DNA from: Acarospora socialis
Lineage: Eukaryota; Ascomycota; Lecanoromycetes; Acarosporales; Acarosporaceae
Length of the DNA stretch: 64,000 nt
Direction of reading: 5' to 3'
NCBI GenBank assembly: GCA_025617375.2
Contig: JAMYGW020000009.1
Coordinates: forward strand, 248,001-312,000
Below, piece by piece: positions 12,283 through 41,029 of this stretch (positions are counted from its first letter, which is position 1; each line of letters begins with the position of its first letter). Below the pieces are notes generated by a model. The model was not told the origin of the DNA. It made no database searches and saw only the letters and a list, made by a program, of their open reading frames with translations. The translations under genes and the position numbers were made by a program.

Positions 12283-15200
12283 ATGGCAGACGCTATGTCA
12301 GTCATCTCATCTCATTGGTTACAGTGGCGATACTGACATGAACAGCACCTTTCATGATAAGGCCAAGGCTCTTCGTCCCGACCAGCCATCAAAGCCTACT
12401 ACGTTTTGGGTCGGCGTGTTGAATGATAGCAAGAAACCAGAGGAGGCCGAAGCCGAGAACGACTTCCTTTGGCTCAAATGTCACAAGGTGAGCTAAGTCA
12501 TGAGCAGGACTTCTGCAATGTTCGTTCACCAAGACCCTCACTTATTCTCCCTTACAGGGAGTTACGGTTCAAACCATTCGCCAGGAGTACATAGCAAGAA
12601 GCTTCCAAGACGAAGAGGTTCTGTTGAAGTATGACAACAGGTTCCTTGACAACACCACGCTCATGAGAGAACTCAATGATCATGGTGATAATCTGATTGC
12701 TATGGAGGCGGTCAAGCGTTCCGATCTACCTGCGCGAGCGCCACGTCCGCCGCTTCAGCCTTCAAATGCCCAAGTTCCGGCGAAGCCTACATCGCCTACG
12801 CCTGCACCAGTGAAGCCGAGTCTAGAACCAGAGGCCCGTTACGCATCGCCTTATGCGCCTAAGACTGGTACACCAGGCGCACTATATATTCCGGGCAGCG
12901 TGGCTGCCAATTCGAATGCTGGCCAGCGAAGAGCTGTAGCAAACAACAACTTGATCGCGAATCGAGTACCTACAAAATCGCCATTATCAGAGCGATCAAG
13001 CAATTCGCAAGGACATGTTGAAGGGCAACATGATGTGGTGGGGCATCGCGAACCTAGAATACTAGGATGGGATGAGACGATTACCACAGCAGTGGCTAAG
13101 GCTCGAACACTCATGGCCCAAGATCCGCTTCATACAGTTGAGAACTTCCCAGCAAAGATGAGGCCAAATCTATCGGCCTTAGCTCAGCATGACAAGGCCT
13201 ATCGCGAGGAGCTCAAAGAGCAGTTCCCTTGGAGGAGCGATGGTACGAACCCATTTCTGGATGAAACGAGCTTAGACTGACTGTGCCTGTCCAGATCAGA
13301 TTGATGAAATGCTAGTGCAGCGTTTCCAGTCAGAGGGCGCACATCAAATTCGCAGCGCTATAAGCCGCGCATCCACGGAAACACCACGAATTAAGGTGGA
13401 CCCGTCGACTGATCTTGTCACCCACAACCATCAAACTACTGGCGATGGAGGTGTCGAGCGCTCTAAGCTTTCTGACACTGGGCAGCCGAAACACTTCCAG
13501 CTCCAGACCTTACTAGCTGGAGCAACTCCTGAGGTTCTGGAGGCGGCCGTCGAGACAGGCGTTGAGATCCTCGATAGAATGAAGACTCCCCTGCTCGAGA
13601 AAGCTCCTTATGCTCCTGACGTTGCACAGTGGCTGCAACAGATTGGTAAGTGATAGGGTGATTCAGGTCCTTTCTCCCTCATAGCTGACAATCGCAGATA
13701 ATGTGCAGAAGCAAGCGGTCAAAACCAAGACGATCGTGGGTGTTGTAGGAAATACTGGAGCTGGCAAGTCGAGTGTCATAAACGCCATGCTGGACGAAGA
13801 GCGGTTGGTGCCTACGAACTGTATGCGTGCTTGCACTGCAGTGGTCACAGAAATCTCATACAATGATACCGAGGATCCTTACTACGCCGAGATTGAGTTC
13901 ATCACAGCACAAGATTGGGAGAAGGAGCTTAAGACGCTGTTCGAAGATCTTCTAGATGGTAATGGTAACGTGTCAAGAGACTGCGTGAAAGAAGATACGG
14001 AAGCTGGAGTTGCCTACGCTAAAATTCGAGCTGTGTATCCGAAGAAGACGAAAGAAGAGATAGCTAACAGCAGCGTCAACGAGTTAGTTCATCACAGAGA
14101 TATCGTGGACCTACTAGGAAGCAGCAAAACGATCAAGGAGACCAATTCAGTGCAATTCTACAAGCGACTACAGCATTACGTAGACAGCAAGGAGAAGTCT
14201 ACTGGCGATGACGAAAAGGACAAGAAGAAGAAACGCCAGATGGAGTACTGGCCCCTCATCAAAGTCGTTAGGTTGTATGTGAAAGCACCAGCGCTGTCCA
14301 CCGGAGCCGTGATCGTTGACTTGCCTGGTGTGCACGACTCCAACGCCGCTCGAGCTGCCGTCGCGGAAGGATACATGAAACAGTGTACGGGGCTGTGGAT
14401 TGTTGCACCGATCAATCGTGCTGTTGACGATAAGGCGGCGAAGTCTCTCCTCGGCGAATCCTTCAAACGACAGCTGAAGATGGATGGTGGATTTAGCTCG
14501 TGCGTAGACACGAAAGGCCTTTTCTGAACATCATATGCTAACATTAACCAGAGTTACCTTTATATGTTCAAAGACCGATGATATCAGCATTGTTGAGGCA
14601 CAAGACTCGCTAGGTTTGGACGAGGAGATGGGAGCTCTATGGGAGAAAAGAAACAGCTATGAGAATGAGCTTAAGCGCTTCAAAAGAGAGCTCGGAGAAC
14701 TGAAGCAATCCAGGGAGGATTATGCTGAAGCTATGGAAGAGGCTGAGGAGCAACTGGAGATTTGGGAAACCTTGAAGGATGACTTGGAGAGTGGCAAAAC
14801 TGTCTACGCCCCTTTACCAAAGCTGCCGTCTGCCAAAAAGCGCAAGAGTGACTCCGGTAGTGCCGGCAAGCCACGCAAGAAGCAACGACGCTCCAGTGGC
14901 TCAGACTCAGATGGCGACAATGGAGACAGCGATTATGCGGACGACGCCTCGGATGCCTCACGTGGGCATGGAAACGAGGATCCCCCGCAAGAAGAGCGCG
15001 GAGACCCGCTGACCGAAGAGCAAGTAGAATCTAAGATCTCCGAACTGAAGTCTACGAAGAAGGGTGGCAGACGACAGCGGCTTCAACTTGAGGAGAAGAT
15101 CAAGGCACTCCGCGCTGAAATGGCCGAAATCGAAAACGCAGATCAAGTAATTGAAGCCGAGATGAGCCGCATGTGTATCAGTGGGAGGAACAACTACTCC

Positions 15201-35656: not shown

Positions 35657-36597
35657 CTAGAAATTGATGACGAGCAACAGATTGAAAAATCCTTAATGGT
35701 TGCGTGTTGCAGCGCAAAGGAAAACTCGGAATCATAGCGAGTCCAAACCGATTATGTATTAATCCAGTATCATATATAGCTCTGAGTATGAGTACTATAC
35801 ACATATATACACTTCTTGGCCCCTATCCTGCTAAGTAGTCTCAATAGCTAACCGCCAGCCCTCCGGAGCTGCCAGCCTGGTCCACCCAATCCCAGCTTCG
35901 GCGACACCGCTAAGATCTCGAACCCTGGGTGCTACACGCACGACACTAAGCCAGCCGCACGAAGACTTTTACAGCCCCCAAGATCGCCCCAAAGCAGGCT
36001 TCAAGACATGTTTCAGGCGCGCGATTCATTGTGAGCCCTGCTCGCCCCGACTGCCCCGACTGCCTCTTCTCTGGCACCCAGAACATCCACTGGTGCGACA
36101 CATCACATGGAGCACGTGTCAATGTCGAGAATGCGGTACGACGTCTTGCCTCGTTACTCGTTTCAAGGCGATGCTGCCGGAGCCGCCGTTGCGGGTGGAA
36201 GAAGATTCCCGAGGAAGACAACCAGGACGGCGCAGTATCTGTGGACAGCCACACATTCAGATTGGTTTCTCCTTACATGGCGAGTTTCTTAGATACCATG
36301 ATGTGTAGGAAATTCTAGGAAGACATGCTCTGCCCCGAGTGATATGAAGGGGCGGTAATGAGGAGAAAACAAGTAATAGTACGGATACAGTATGAAAACG
36401 TAACAGTGACGTCTTGCCTTCGTGCCGAAGGAACTCTAATACGGGTACATGTGATTGCAGTTCCCTGTCGTAGCCCATTACAACGCGATTTGTACCGTCA
36501 TCAACAAAAGGGTCTCGGCAAGTCTAGAAGGGCGTCGCAGGAGGAAGAAAGGCTAATCAAGATCTCCAGGCCGAGCGCAACGGAAGGAGATGGGAAC
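35657..36597. other. Convergent intergenic region
   Basis: 941 bp between a plus-strand stop and the minus-strand DUF6594 stop. Short frames at 36031-36318 on both strands have no recognisable motifs. If the DUF6594 gene has an extra terminal exon it would lie here, but I could not find one that continues the family sequence. Confidence 0.5.
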
Positions 36598-37934
36598 TTA
36601 CGCAGCGGTGGCCGCAAACACCTCATGCCTCTTGGCCTTCGTGAACACGGACAGAGCTGCCGAGAAGAAGAACGTAAAGAGCAAAACCACACCGATCTTG
36701 ACACCGCTGGACTCCGGCACACCGAACAGCACCACAACGGGCGCCATCAGCAAAGCGACAGCCAGGAGAGTAATGACGAGCCGCGTGAAGATGTCAAGCC
36801 GTTCCTTGGAGTATAGGTGCACGCAGTCGTCGTCCGTCTTGCAGCGTTCAGCTTCGGATGTGAATAGGAACTGTATCTGTTTAGTCCCGGATCTTCAGGT
36901 CACGCATCTACTGGCTGGAGAAAAGGCAGTTTAGTTGAATCAGCAGTAGCACACTCACTCTGCTCAATTTAGGCGGTAGAAATCTCAGCATGCGTTCAAC
37001 ACAACCATCGAACCAACCGCCTTCCTGCCCGTCCGCGAGTGCGATGAAGTCCTCGTCGTGCGTGACGAAAGAGGATTCGCTACGGGAAAGCGGCTTGTAG
37101 TTGTTCATCCAGGTCGCGAGACTTTTGTGATGCCGTGGCAAAGGCTTTCTAATGGATGCAAAGGTTTGACAGCGAAGGACCAGTTCATCTACCATCTATC
37201 AGAGCAGTTCTTGTAGTCTTAATCCGTAGGCTGGACCAACCGTATTCCTTTAATTTCTCGTCGATGCCGAGGATCAGGTCCTTACGCGTCGAGTCATAAA
37301 ATTCTCTGGATACCAATGCGCTTGGATTGTTTTTCTCATCATCGGCGTCAAGCTCGACGAGCTGATTTTCCAATTGTGCTAATTCGTCTTGCCTGTATAG
37401 CAGTACACGGGAATGCAAGAATCCAAAGCGGCGGCACATCAGGAAACTGGGATCGCTGTTGACGAAAGCGGCCAATCGAGGGTAGCCCAACGGATGATCG
37501 TCAACTGTCCGGATGTTTAGATCGATTGGCAAACGTAACACGTCGGCAGCTTGCTTACTCTTTTGCAGACTTTTCTCCGCCGGGCCATTCTTGTTCCTCC
37601 GCAATGTTTCTGGTAGATGCGACAGCTTTTCGGAAAAGGACAGACTTCGAACATATTCTGAAAGGCGACGGTGGAAGCTATATTTGGGCGGACCTAAACT
37701 CCACGTCAACGCCTCAACAGTCTGACGCCATGTTGGATTAGCCTTACTGTCTTGGCAATCGGGGCTATCGTCTTGTAAGGTAGCGCCTCCGTTGACATAT
37801 GAACATCTCTCATTATTGAACTCTTGTTTCTCTACGTCCGAGTTGATATTGATTACTGCGTCGTTGGTTGACAACGATGAACTCCGAGGCGAGCCAGGGT
37901 TTGTCGACGGCGGGGTTGGTGGCGGAACAGACAT
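36598..37934 (-). CDS. DUF6594 family membrane protein
   Basis: Exons 37241-37934, 36959-37188, 36598-36870 (minus), 398 residues. A Pezizomycotina-specific family, function unknown. The first 130 residues are polar and disordered. The conserved part begins DDHPLGYPRLAAFVNSDPSFLMCRRFGFLHSR, where the family's GYP(R/K)LA motif is clear, followed by a coiled-coil-like QDELAQLENQLVELDADDE. The C-terminus has two adjacent hydrophobic helices (FTRLVITLLAVALLMAPVVV and GVKIGVVLLFTFFFSAALSV) and ends KRHEVFAATAA. Family members I recall usually continue a few residues past AATAA; here the stop codon TAA overlaps a canonical gtaagt donor, so a further exon or an intron-retention end is possible. Same strand as the small gene and the caspase-like gene upstream. 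Confidence 0.8.
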
Positions 37935-38495
37935 GACAGAAAAGACAGAATTGACAGGTAACCAAATTCAAAAGCACAACCAGAATGTCAAATGCGGTCA
38001 CCGCTTTGCAATCGTGCTTCAGACAGAATGGCGGCAGAAATCGGGGCTTCTTATTAGAAAACAATCTCATACACATAAGCTGATGTCCGGAGATGCCTAG
38101 TTCTCACCGCTGTTCCGAAGGAGCTGTTTGCCCATCGAAAATATTTGTGCAAGGGTAAGCAACTCAGCCCCCAAGGCTTACCAGATTGTTTGTGGGAAAA
38201 TCGGCCGTCCTGTAAACAACCATTGGCTGCCATGCAAAAGCAACAATACTTCGTACGGGCAAGCAGTTCCATACGTGAAGCCAGCCATGTGGCACATCCA
38301 GCACAGCACAGCCCAGCCTGAGCCCATCGCAATACTATACAACAATAATCCGGCAAAGCATTGCACAACATAACAGGTTCCACTTCAGCTCCTGCGGAGC
38401 ATTAATTCCTATCGAAAGGGAGGTTTGTACTATGCGTGTGCTTTCCACTTAGTCTGCCCATCATCCTCTGATTGGGGATTCCAGATGCCAGGCAC
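37935..38495. other. Spacer between the DUF6594 gene and the 87-residue gene
   Basis: 561 bp. Expected to hold the DUF6594 promoter and the 3' UTR of the small gene. Open frames here have no motifs. Confidence 0.5.
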
Positions 38496-38805
38496 TCATT
38501 GCGAAATCGGCTTAAGTGCCTCTTCCTTGACTCCATCCTGGACGACCTGTCCGTCTGTCAGGCGGTATGTGCCATCCGTATACACTGCGTCAATAACATA
38601 GGGACCGTCGAGACCTCTAGCTCGCTTCAGCCACACTTTCCAACCCTTTCGGTAGAGGATTGGATACTGTTTCTTAGCTATGAATTTGACGAGGAGTCAT
38701 CTTGCATAGAGAGCTTACTTCAGCAGCTTTGTTAACCTGAGTCACATGCCCTCGAAAGTCGATGGAACCGGTGGGGTTGTTCCCAGTTCCTGACCCTTCC
38801 GCCAT
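38496..38805 (-). CDS. Small two-exon protein (87 residues) with GPY...DGTY core
   Basis: Exon 1 38719-38805, intron 38673-38718 (46 nt, gtaagc donor, ctaag acceptor), exon 2 38496-38672. Neither exon makes a long open frame, so it is easily missed. Residues 1-30 are polar (MAEGSGTGNNPTG...). Residues 36-80 form a compact core with alternating hydrophobic and polar residues: KVWLKRARGLDGPYVIDAVY, then TDGTYRLTDGQVVQDG and VKEEALKPI. The pattern suggests a small beta-barrel (SH3-like). I recall many short Pezizomycotina proteins of the form V.L...G..GPY.I..V...G.Y.L....G....NG..V.E..L, without known function. It lies 545 bp downstream of the caspase-like gene on the same strand. The coding call rests on frame, splice signals and this pattern; the function is unknown. 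Confidence 0.7.
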
Positions 38806-39350
38806 CTGAGGCTGGTCCTTTGCTTGCTAGCGACCGGTGTTAGGCTGCCTTAGCTTCGCCCAAGCTCTTCTGGGCATACCTCGGTTGGAGAAGACATAGG
38901 TCGAAAGTAATCCCTTGACTATTGTGTGCGATTTATTTTACGCAAGTTATGTTGTGTATGTGCAAAACGTTGGGTAGCCTGTGGCAAAGTTATGCCGGAT
39001 AGTCAAAATCTGAAGACTTCTGCTGAACTGCGCGATGGCGGGTTCTTTAAACTTGGCCCCCTCCGCATCTCCATGTCCCACAAGGTTGCTGCACACCATC
39101 GGATTGTCAATCCAACGACATACATGCAAGAGCCACCCACCAATCTGGACCATAGCAATCCAAAGCTTGCATCGACTGAGGCTCTGTTGGCTGAGTGCGC
39201 GTTCACACCTCATGCAAGTCGATGCTCCGGACGTACTCAGATCAGCGACAATCCATGTATAAGCGGTCCTGTAGATTCTCGAATGCTTGTATCGCATTAA
39301 GCTGGGATATCTTTGTATCCGAGCCTTTGGAACTCTTGAGATATTTGCAA
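38806..39350. other. Spacer between the small gene and the caspase-like gene
   Basis: 545 bp, 3' UTR of the caspase-like gene and promoter of the small gene. A minus-strand frame (38947-39420) runs through it but overlaps the caspase end and lacks motifs. Confidence 0.5.
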
Positions 39351-41029
39351 TTACTCTCGTGATACGTGCCAAAGACAAGCGACGCCGAAGACGACCACTG
39401 CCCATATGAATACATCCCAAGATGATGTTCGCGAACTGTGATAGTCCACTGCCTGGTCTACAACCGACACCATCGTAGGTACACGCCTTTTGCCACCGGC
39501 GATAGAACTCGCGGATGACTGCTCGAGAGGTGTGTGTTCGACTATATGCCCATTCGCATCCATCTGTTTGGGTCTAGGCATGGAAAGCTTGCCTAACAAA
39601 CTCCTAACGCTGGGGAGGTTTAATGAGTAAGCAACGGAGAAGAGACCGAGGAAGTAATGAATTTTGGCAGGTGGATTCTGTCCATCCAGAGACGGGGCCC
39701 TGTTGGAATCTCTTCGCGAGAATGCCGAGCGTGAAGTTTCTCGGACCGGCATAAAGGTACCGTCTCTTAACTGCGCAACCCCATCATTCCAATCGTACAG
39801 ATGACGGTAGTGCTGCTTTTCCAAGAGCGCAACATAGTTTTCGCCTCGTTTATACATATTCGAGATCTCCCTTGCCCCTCGCCTGGCCCGTACCGTCCGA
39901 GCCCATCGCAACAGATATTGCACCCGCTTAATAGAGGACCTCAGTGACTTGATATCCTCCTCTGGAGCGTGTAGCTGTGCAAGAACCACCTCCTGCACGT
40001 GCGGTAGATACTGGAGGGATTTCGCTAATTCGTTCATCATGAGGCCGTTAGGTGCCTCAGTCAGGTGCAGAGTTAAGTCAATCGTGATGTCTCGTTCTTT
40101 CGGCGTGGTGATTGCTTGCGATGTCGCTGGTAAGGGACGAAGCCAAATTTTACCGTAGTCGTAGCGCGATTGATCGAAGAGATATGGTTTGTACTCCAAC
40201 TTCGCGTTGTGGTATATATCACGATAGAGTTTCGATGTGGAGAACCCTTTCATGTATTTCTCGCTGTCGAGGAGGTTGTCCAAGACATCTGAAAGTATCT
40301 TGGTGAAAGAGCCTTCGTGCTTTGGCGCAAGGGCCCACTCCCCTTGCGAAGTTGATGCCAGAAGCTCAAACTTCCGCTTCCCCATCTCTCCATTAGCAAA
40401 CGCTTTGCCTGCGAAGCAGCAGTCGATGATAACAAGAATATCAGTGTCCGGTAGCCGCAGAGTGTTGAGGAAATCGTTGAAGAATGCACGTGGGTTTCCA
40501 TCGCCGTCGCCCTCCCATTTCCTATTTAGATATCTATCAGCACAGCGCGCTCTCCAGATAAGTCGAACTGAACACCCACGCTGCAAGCTTCAGAGCCTGG
40601 CTCTCCTCTCCAGTATAAGCATGGCCACTGTAGTAAAGGATCATCAAGTTGTTTGGCTGGTCGTATTCATAGGCGAAATTCGCAATTTTCTGGTGCAAGC
40701 CAGTCTCCGACTTCTCTGACGGTATTTCGTAGGTGTCGGTGGTATAATGAAACCTCTTCTCAAATATCTCTTGGAGGCGTTTGACCTTGCACCCAGAGTT
40801 GTTTAGTAGATTTCTATGTGTAGTTGTTGGCAAGACCTACTTCTAGAATTTTGGAGTTCAGATCATCGTCCTTCCATGTGAGGAGCAAAACCCCAACTTT
40901 CTCATATTCACGGCCATTACGATAATGACCCGCGATTGTCTTGTTGAACACGAATTCCGCGTCATGCTGAACCAAAGCGTTTCGAGTAGCTTTAGGTGGA
41001 GCCTCAACATGCACGTCAAGGGTGGCCAT
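39351..41029 (-). CDS. Caspase-like (peptidase C14) protein with C-terminal membrane segment
   Basis: Exons 40841-41029, 40580-40785, 39351-40521 (minus), 521 residues. Cysteine-protease fold of the caspase/metacaspase clan. Seen: first strand YEKVGVLLLTW (about 42-52), VKRLQEIFEKRFHY (64-77), catalytic His118 in NLMILYYSGHAYTG, and catalytic Cys in DILVIIDCCFAGKAF (Cys166/167). A DCC(F/Y)(A/S)G form is typical of fungal standalone or NLR-linked caspase-like proteins, in contrast to the DSCHSG of classical metacaspases. After the protease domain come a helical region (about 250-380) with basic patches and a disordered stretch. A transmembrane helix, VFIWAVVVFGVACLW (about 501-515), sits six residues from the C-terminus, so the protein would be tail-anchored and face the cytosol. 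Start 41029 (MATLDVHV) is preferred over the in-frame 41197. Role in regulated cell death is inference. Confidence 0.83.

What the first reader, a model, noticed from the sequence alone, without database searches (positions are those of the whole stretch)
36598..41029. Possible cell-death module: membrane-anchored caspase-like protein, 87-residue protein, DUF6594 membrane protein
Three genes sit head-to-tail on the minus strand in a gene-poor stretch: a C14 caspase-like protein with intact His118 and Cys166/167 and a tail anchor, a tiny GPY/DGTY-core protein 545 bp downstream, and a DUF6594 protein with two C-terminal membrane helices. Seen directly: motifs, membrane segments, order and strand. 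Known: caspase-like domains with DCC(F/Y) active sites occur in fungal NLR and cell-death proteins. Inferred: the small protein could be a regulator or cleaved partner, and the DUF6594 protein a membrane executor or target. The caspase-like protein has no nucleotide-binding sensor of its own, so a sensor would have to be elsewhere.
Basis: partly seen in the sequence, partly recalled or inferred. Interest (0 to 1): 0.75.

Follow-up and report, generated by a model that had tools for sequence, protein, structure and literature searches.

The report
Fungal caspase-like and membrane gene pair
In a fungal genome, a protease related to the enzymes that run cell death in animals sits next to an unstudied membrane-protein gene, and the same two gene families sit together at two more places in that genome in different orientations, which suggests, without proof, that they work as one membrane-linked switch, perhaps for cell death.

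Summary
The three genes are there, with corrections: the small protein is 85 aa, not 87, and the DUF6594 gene runs on to 36163, giving 424 aa and three hydrophobic segments. The caspase-like protein (521 aa) keeps its His118 and Cys166/167 motifs and a hydrophobic tail. The pairing is more than chance: searches found 4 genes of this caspase-like family and 12 DUF6594 genes in the genome, and 3 of 4 caspase-like genes lie within 1.6 kb of a DUF6594 gene, as tandem, convergent and divergent pairs (random placement P about 8e-8; 2e-5 without the window). All four caspase domains score higher with the model of bacterial EACC1-associated caspases than with the general caspase model; the genome's metacaspase does the reverse. 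Best reading: a two-gene, membrane-linked caspase module, probably for conflict or regulated death, resembling bacterial EACC1-caspase and fungal protease-gasdermin pairs but a member of neither. The small gene has no support as a partner. Function is untested, and in a second, partial fungal genome the relatives found were not linked.

The parts
39351..41029 (-). caspase-like gene, 521 aa; exons 41029-40841, 40785-40580, 40521-39351; Pfam C14 match at residues 56-214; hydrophobic tail 497-519
   Evidence: model; PF00656 E=1.5e-7; H118, C166, C167 invariant in 4 of 4 aligned paralogs; tail; NF047832 E=1.3e-11
40621..40635 (-). YYSGH(118), catalytic-histidine motif, exon 2
   Evidence: read from the sequence with the model
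40416..40430 (-). IIDCC(166/167), catalytic-cysteine motif, exon 3
   Evidence: read from the sequence with the model
38496..38805 (-). small gene, 85 aa, exons 38805-38719 and 38666-38496; perhaps a small SH3/PWWP-like barrel (weak); not shown to belong to the pair
   Evidence: (codon score; exon 2 model, pLDDT 65.2; best E 0.51; no paralog found)
36163..37934 (-). DUF6594 membrane-protein gene, 424 aa; exons 37934-37241, 37188-36959, 36876-36602, 36238-36163
   Evidence: model; PF20237 E=6.9e-70, residues 151-406; three hydrophobic segments

Best explanation
The caspase-like gene and the DUF6594 gene form a two-gene functional unit: a cysteine protease with a constant N-terminal caspase domain and a variable C-terminal part, plus a constant membrane protein. 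Shown: the two families, intact catalytic motifs, hydrophobic segments, and linkage at three places in three orientations. Inferred: the protease is held inactive at or near a membrane with DUF6594; a signal through the variable part (here a hydrophobic tail, in C5 a kinase-like domain) or through the membrane protein brings protease copies together; cleavage, of itself or of DUF6594, then changes the membrane component or frees an effector. The outcome is most likely conflict-related, such as regulated cell death. Whether DUF6594 acts upstream (sensor or scaffold, as proposed for bacterial EACC1) or downstream (cleaved executor, as fungal gasdermins) cannot be told here. The small gene between them is most likely a local passenger.
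For: 3 of the 4 caspase-like genes found lie next to one of the 12 DUF6594 genes found (gaps 787, 1417 and 1555 bases; searches). Random placement: 0 of 2,000,000 simulations reach 3; binomial 7.8e-8, and 2.2e-5 with the window left out. Orientation differs: tandem, convergent, divergent. Between 13 neighbourhoods only these two families recur, apart from one match between two DUF6594 loci without caspase (coverage 3.2-36 kb per locus), which speaks against recent block duplication. The three linked DUF6594 genes group with C4a, apart from 7 others. Specificity: 0 of 12 DUF6594 genes within 10 kb of the NACHT (25), S8 (3) or CHAT (4 matches, counted as 3 places) matches; 2 of 12 within 10 kb of a HET match (52). 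Catalytic motifs intact in 4 of 4. Precedents: PMC3321046 (section 17 and passages: clustering of STAND/effector pairs conserved, orientation not); PMC10197012 (passages) and PMC12881547 (section 21 and passages): about 80% of fungal gasdermin genes clustered with protease genes; PMC7159879 (passages): EACC1-caspase membrane pair.
Against: One genome; paralogous pairs are not independent draws, since an ancestral pair may have been copied. 1 of 4 caspase-like genes (C3) and 9 of 12 DUF6594 genes are unlinked, so neither needs the other next door. In a second, partial fungal genome (fungal-looking contigs of the MAG behind L069) the one caspase found (closest to C3) and the three DUF6594 genes found lie on different contigs, and the DUF6594 gene closest to C4a has no caspase in 11 kb around it. 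No shared sequence motif between the partner proteins. No expression, interaction, cleavage or death data.
Confidence: 0.5

Rival explanations
1. Inherited neighbourhood: an ancestral caspase-DUF6594 pair was duplicated and has stayed together by descent without any joint function.
For: The three linked DUF6594 genes group together with C4a (support 0.86 SH-like, 85 UFBoot); caspase genes w and C12 seem to share an intron position that C5 and C3 lack (by eye on hand-made models), so the caspases are old copies of one another.
Against: The paralogs share only 24-27% identity with the window's caspase-like protein over full length, the orientation differs at each of the three loci, and no other neighbour is shared among them; linkage surviving that much change is more easily explained by selection.
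Confidence: 0.25
2. Protease-executor pair: DUF6594 is the substrate and death executor, cut by the caspase-like protein as gasdermins are cut by S8 or CHAT proteases.
For: Three C-terminal hydrophobic segments and a 150-residue extension before the domain; a protease gene beside a membrane-protein gene matches fungal gasdermin clusters.
Against: No gasdermin match by Pfam; 9 of 12 DUF6594 genes have no caspase neighbour; no cleavage site could be named.
Confidence: 0.25
3. Three-gene module with the 85-aa protein as regulator.
For: Same strand, 545 bases below the caspase stop; coding-like codon score.
Against: No copy found elsewhere in the genome or among frames beside the other two pairs; no family in Pfam or NCBIfam; similarity to either partner no better than shuffled sequence.
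Confidence: 0.07
4. Chance neighbours.
For: The C3 caspase-like gene and the C4a DUF6594 gene are solo.
Against: P about 8e-8 for 3 of 4 under random placement.
Confidence: 0.03

Closest known systems
Bacterial EACC1-caspase two-gene conflict system (System 4 of Kaur et al. 2020, PMC7159879, passages seen)
   Same: Two genes: a constant membrane component and a protein with an N-terminal caspase domain and variable C-terminal domains. The caspase model NF047832 is the best NCBIfam match of all four fungal domains (window 44.4, C5 36.5, C3 46.3, C12 45.0 bits), above Peptidase_C14 (31.8, 17.5, 30.9, 32.9); the scan with the four fungal caspases returned a Streptomyces locus with an EACC1 gene (PF19953, E=4e-13) directly before a caspase gene.
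   Different: The NF047832 cut-off of 140 bits is not reached; the membrane partner is DUF6594, not EACC1; separate genes in differing orientation.
Fungal gasdermin-protease gene pairs (HET-Q1/HET-Q2 and CHAT types)
   Same: Protease gene beside a membrane-acting-protein gene; protease proteins carry other domains.
   Different: Protease matches neither S8 nor CHAT in Pfam, and DUF6594 matches no gasdermin model there.
Fungal STAND/effector pairs (het-S/nwd2, sesA/sesB)
   Same: Adjacent genes kept together while orientation varies.
   Different: No NACHT match in the three proteins; no shared motif between partners.
Fungal metacaspases
   Same: Caspase superfamily with His/Cys motifs.
   Different: The genome's metacaspase scores 121.3 bits with Peptidase_C14 and 30.2 with NF047832, the reverse of the four genes here; DCC in place of DSC.

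Membership tests
Peptidase C14 (caspase superfamily), PF00656 | Score above the curated cut-off | tested here: met
   window protein 31.8 bits against 21.4; C3 30.9 and C12 32.9 also, C5 only 17.5
Peptidase C14 (caspase superfamily), PF00656 | Catalytic His and Cys motifs | tested here: met
   YYxGH118 and DCC166/167 invariant in 4 of 4 aligned paralogs; that the second Cys is the nucleophile is inferred by eye from DSC of the metacaspase and recalled knowledge
Peptidase C14 (caspase superfamily), PF00656 | Proteolytic activity | not testable with these tools
   needs purified protein
DUF6594, PF20237 | Full-length domain match above cut-off | tested here: met
   236.1 bits against 30, model 1-238 of 238
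EACC1-caspase system | Caspase of NF047832 type above its cut-off | tested here: not met
   44.4 bits against 140; nearest type but not a member
EACC1-caspase system | EACC1 (PF19953) partner gene | tested here: not met
   neither the small protein nor the DUF6594 protein matches PF19953 (E up to 1)
Fungal gasdermin-protease pair | Gasdermin partner | tested here: not met
   no gasdermin model among Pfam matches of the three proteins; whether Pfam covers fungal gasdermins was not checked
Fungal gasdermin-protease pair | S8 or CHAT protease | tested here: not met
   no such match of the protein; S8 and CHAT matches of the genome lie elsewhere
Fungal NLR / STAND pair | NACHT or other STAND domain in or beside the pair | tested here: not met
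   none in the three proteins; nearest NACHT match 78 kb from the caspase gene
Metacaspase | Closer to metacaspases than to other caspase types | tested here: inconclusive
   score preference is the reverse of the genome's metacaspase, but no phylogeny with bacterial and metacaspase sequences was made

The most novel reading that the evidence does not exclude
Filamentous fungi carry a descendant or counterpart of the bacterial EACC1-caspase conflict system in which the bacterial membrane component was replaced by DUF6594, making DUF6594 a new class of membrane sensor or death executor controlled by a caspase-like protease.
Probability: 0.22. Interest if true: 0.78.

Novelty: new variant of a known kind. 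Interest (0 to 1): 0.55.

Why it matters
Fungi are commonly said to lack true caspases, and the caspase-related proteins usually discussed in them are metacaspases and CHAT proteases (passages of PMC11596484 and PMC12881547, and recalled). A separate caspase-like family tied by gene linkage to an unstudied membrane family would give a new two-gene system to test in fungal self/non-self and antimicrobial defence, a first functional lead for DUF6594 (no paper in the searched open library holds 'DUF6594' or 'PF20237'), and a possible bridge between bacterial conflict systems and fungal cell death.

Tried and rejected
Search for prokaryotic or viral DUF6594 relatives with one protein, which reaches close relatives only: 25 and 1 stretches matched a pattern, none confirmed. 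Solved structures of the caspase-like and the small protein: no significant relative; the DUF6594 protein was not searched there. Structure of the caspase exon 3 without alignment: pLDDT 36.9, useless. Structure of the small protein's exon 2: pLDDT 65.2, best PDB match E=0.51 (PWWP), only a hint of a small barrel. Shared motif between partners: scores within shuffles (10-60% of 300 shuffles reach them). PADLOC: only a weak 'caspase' match, E=0.013. Plasmid collection: two bacterial 'caspase family protein' matches at about 25% identity, not followed. General link of DUF6594 to cell-death genes: 0 of 12 within 10 kb of NACHT, S8 or CHAT matches; HET 2 of 12 (0.4 expected, P 0.06). The other last exon of the DUF6594 gene (to 36478, 414 aa) was set aside because the longer model carries on the hydrophobic end usual for the family, which I recall. 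Codon scores: the caspase and DUF6594 genes are reached by 4.8% and 8.0% of the 374 control stretches; synonymous-only scores were not distinctive for the small gene and lie near zero for all three. The caspase of the second fungus scores poorly exon by exon: NF047832 none and 19.2 bits, Peptidase_C14 18.8 bits and none.
Full report
What is there. The window is bases 248001-312000 of contig 9 of a 31.1 Mb genome in 38 contigs, fungal by its introns, HET domains and DUF6594 genes (inferred; no label is given). On the minus strand lie, in order, a caspase-like gene (41029..39351, 521 aa, two introns), a small gene (38805..38496, 85 aa, one intron) and a DUF6594 gene (37934..36163, 424 aa, three introns). 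The models rest on splice signals and family fit, not on transcripts.

The caspase-like protein matches Peptidase_C14 (31.8 bits, cut-off 21.4). The window protein as query found three relatives in the genome, C5, C3 and C12; queries with C3 and C5 found the same set without C12, and the PF00656 search found only C12 and a metacaspase, so four is a lower bound. The relatives share 24-27% identity with the window protein over full length; Y114-Y115-x-G-H118 and D165-C166-C167 are invariant in 4 of 4. The C-terminal parts differ: a hydrophobic tail in the window protein (497-519), a kinase-like DUF7580 domain in C5 (32.7 bits, cut-off 27, on a tail joined by hand), and no Pfam match in the C-terminal parts of C3 and C12.

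Linkage. PF20237 gave 24 matches that, I group into 12 DUF6594 genes; one, C3:1792k, lies in a 14 kb stretch without any frame of 130 codons and is probably a relic. Three of the four caspase-like genes lie beside a DUF6594 gene: window (tandem, gap 1417 bases, small gene in between), C5 (convergent, 787) and C12 (divergent, 1555); some edges are those of domain matches or estimated gene ends. For C3 the nearest DUF6594 match is 196 kb away. With random placement of 12 and 4 genes in 31.1 Mb and centres within 3.5 kb, 0.011 linked genes are expected; 0 of 2,000,000 simulations reached three, binomial P 7.8e-8, and 2.2e-5 for 2 of 3 with the window left out. This treats the pairs as independent, which they may not be.

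Is it a wider island effect? Of the 12 DUF6594 genes, 0 lie within 10 kb of the 25 NACHT, 3 S8 or 4 CHAT matches (CHAT counted as 3 places); 2 (C6a, C9b) lie 4.9 and 6.9 kb from one of 52 HET matches, 0.4 expected, P 0.06; one (C3a) lies 13.3 kb from the metacaspase. Comparing translated frames between 13 neighbourhoods, only the two families recur, apart from one match between C6a and C9b that looks like a ubiquitin-conjugating enzyme by eye; coverage was unequal, from 3.2 kb to 36 kb per locus. In a tree of 11 of the 12 DUF6594 genes the window, C5, C12 and C4a genes are separated from the other 7 (0.86 SH-like, 85 UFBoot), with weak support inside. C4a has no caspase-like match on its contig. 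The C5 pair has a further neighbour, a kinase frame and an ankyrin-repeat frame on the same strand, perhaps one gene.

Relation to bacterial systems. The best NCBIfam match of all four caspase domains is NF047832, 'caspase, EACC1-associated type' (44.4, 36.5, 46.3 and 45.0 bits for window, C5, C3, C12), higher than with Peptidase_C14 (31.8, 17.5, 30.9, 32.9). The genome's metacaspase, joined by hand from two exons, shows the reverse: 121.3 with Peptidase_C14 against 30.2. None of the fungal proteins reaches the 140-bit cut-off, so this is nearest type, not membership. A pattern scan of the prokaryote genome collection with the four fungal caspases gave 67 stretches, of which 2 were confirmed: a Streptomyces locus where an EACC1 gene (PF19953, E=4e-13) directly precedes a caspase gene (NF047832, 179.8 bits), and a contig filed as a deltaproteobacterial MAG that looks fungal. 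The EACC1 system was described as a membrane-associated pair whose caspase component carries variable C-terminal domains, at least 33% of the caspase-carrying proteins having membrane helices (PMC7159879, passages). The fungal pair has the same plan with a different membrane protein.

A second fungus: evidence that does not help. The fungal-looking MAG (7.3 Mb held) has three DUF6594 genes, on contigs of 145,368, 314,690 and 133,948 bases, none on the 294,724-base contig that holds its caspase. That caspase is closest to C3, the solo gene (E=2e-18, against 6e-15 for C5); one DUF6594 gene is closest to C4a, a solo gene, and has no caspase in 11 kb around it. Exon by exon its caspase scores poorly with both caspase models. 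So the types seen there are solo in both genomes; linked types were not found there, and the scan was pattern-limited. Recurrence across species is therefore not shown.

The small protein. No paralog was found in the genome, no match in Pfam or NCBIfam and no similar frame beside the other two pairs. Its codon score is coding-like. A single-sequence model of its second exon is beta-rich at low confidence, with PWWP- and Tudor-like matches that are not significant.

Mechanism. Shown: catalytic motifs, hydrophobic segments, linkage. Inferred: joint action at a membrane, triggering through the variable C-terminal part or the membrane protein, and a conflict or death outcome. The strongest outside support is precedent: in fungi, effector genes and their STAND partners are kept as neighbours while orientation varies (PMC3321046, section 17 and passages), and about 80% of gasdermin genes lie near protease genes (PMC10197012, passages; PMC12881547, section 21 and passages). 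The primary gasdermin-protease paper was not read. Against a tight executor role stands the fact that 9 of 12 DUF6594 genes have no such neighbour.

Novelty. 'DUF6594', 'PF20237' and 'DUF7580' occur in no paper of the searched open library; five wider searches (two of them listing 20 of 27 and 8 of 10 papers) showed nothing on such a pair in titles or abstract starts. Passages of PMC9815663, PMC11596484 and PMC8195603 were also seen. Most subscription papers and preprints are not in that library. I rate it a new variant of a known kind.

Noticed in passing
L069 (NYXK01000053.1, MAG filed as Deltaproteobacteria) and G001 contigs 9, 75, 190: The contigs look fungal: a caspase gene split over two frames, a YDR124W-like domain (PF11001), three DUF6594 genes; the bacterial MAG seems to contain fungal sequence.
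   Followed up: partly
G000:C6:121804-122229 and G000:C9:944496-945388: Two DUF6594 genes lie 4.9 and 6.9 kb from HET-domain matches (0.4 expected within 10 kb, P 0.06).
   Followed up: partly
G000:C3:199090-213823: A DUF6594 domain ends one 694-codon frame with about 430 residues of no Pfam match before it, and lies 13.3 kb from the genome's metacaspase.
   Followed up: no
G000:C3:1786001-1800000: A DUF6594 match with many stops in a 14 kb stretch without any frame of 130 codons; perhaps a repeat-mutated region (inferred).
   Followed up: no
G000:C5:1282877-1286783: Protein-kinase frame followed by a 923-codon ankyrin-repeat frame on the same strand beside the C5 DUF6594 gene; possibly one receptor-like gene.
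   Followed up: partly
window 13685-14524: Frame with a Dynamin_N match (E=3.7e-18), a large GTPase.
   Followed up: no
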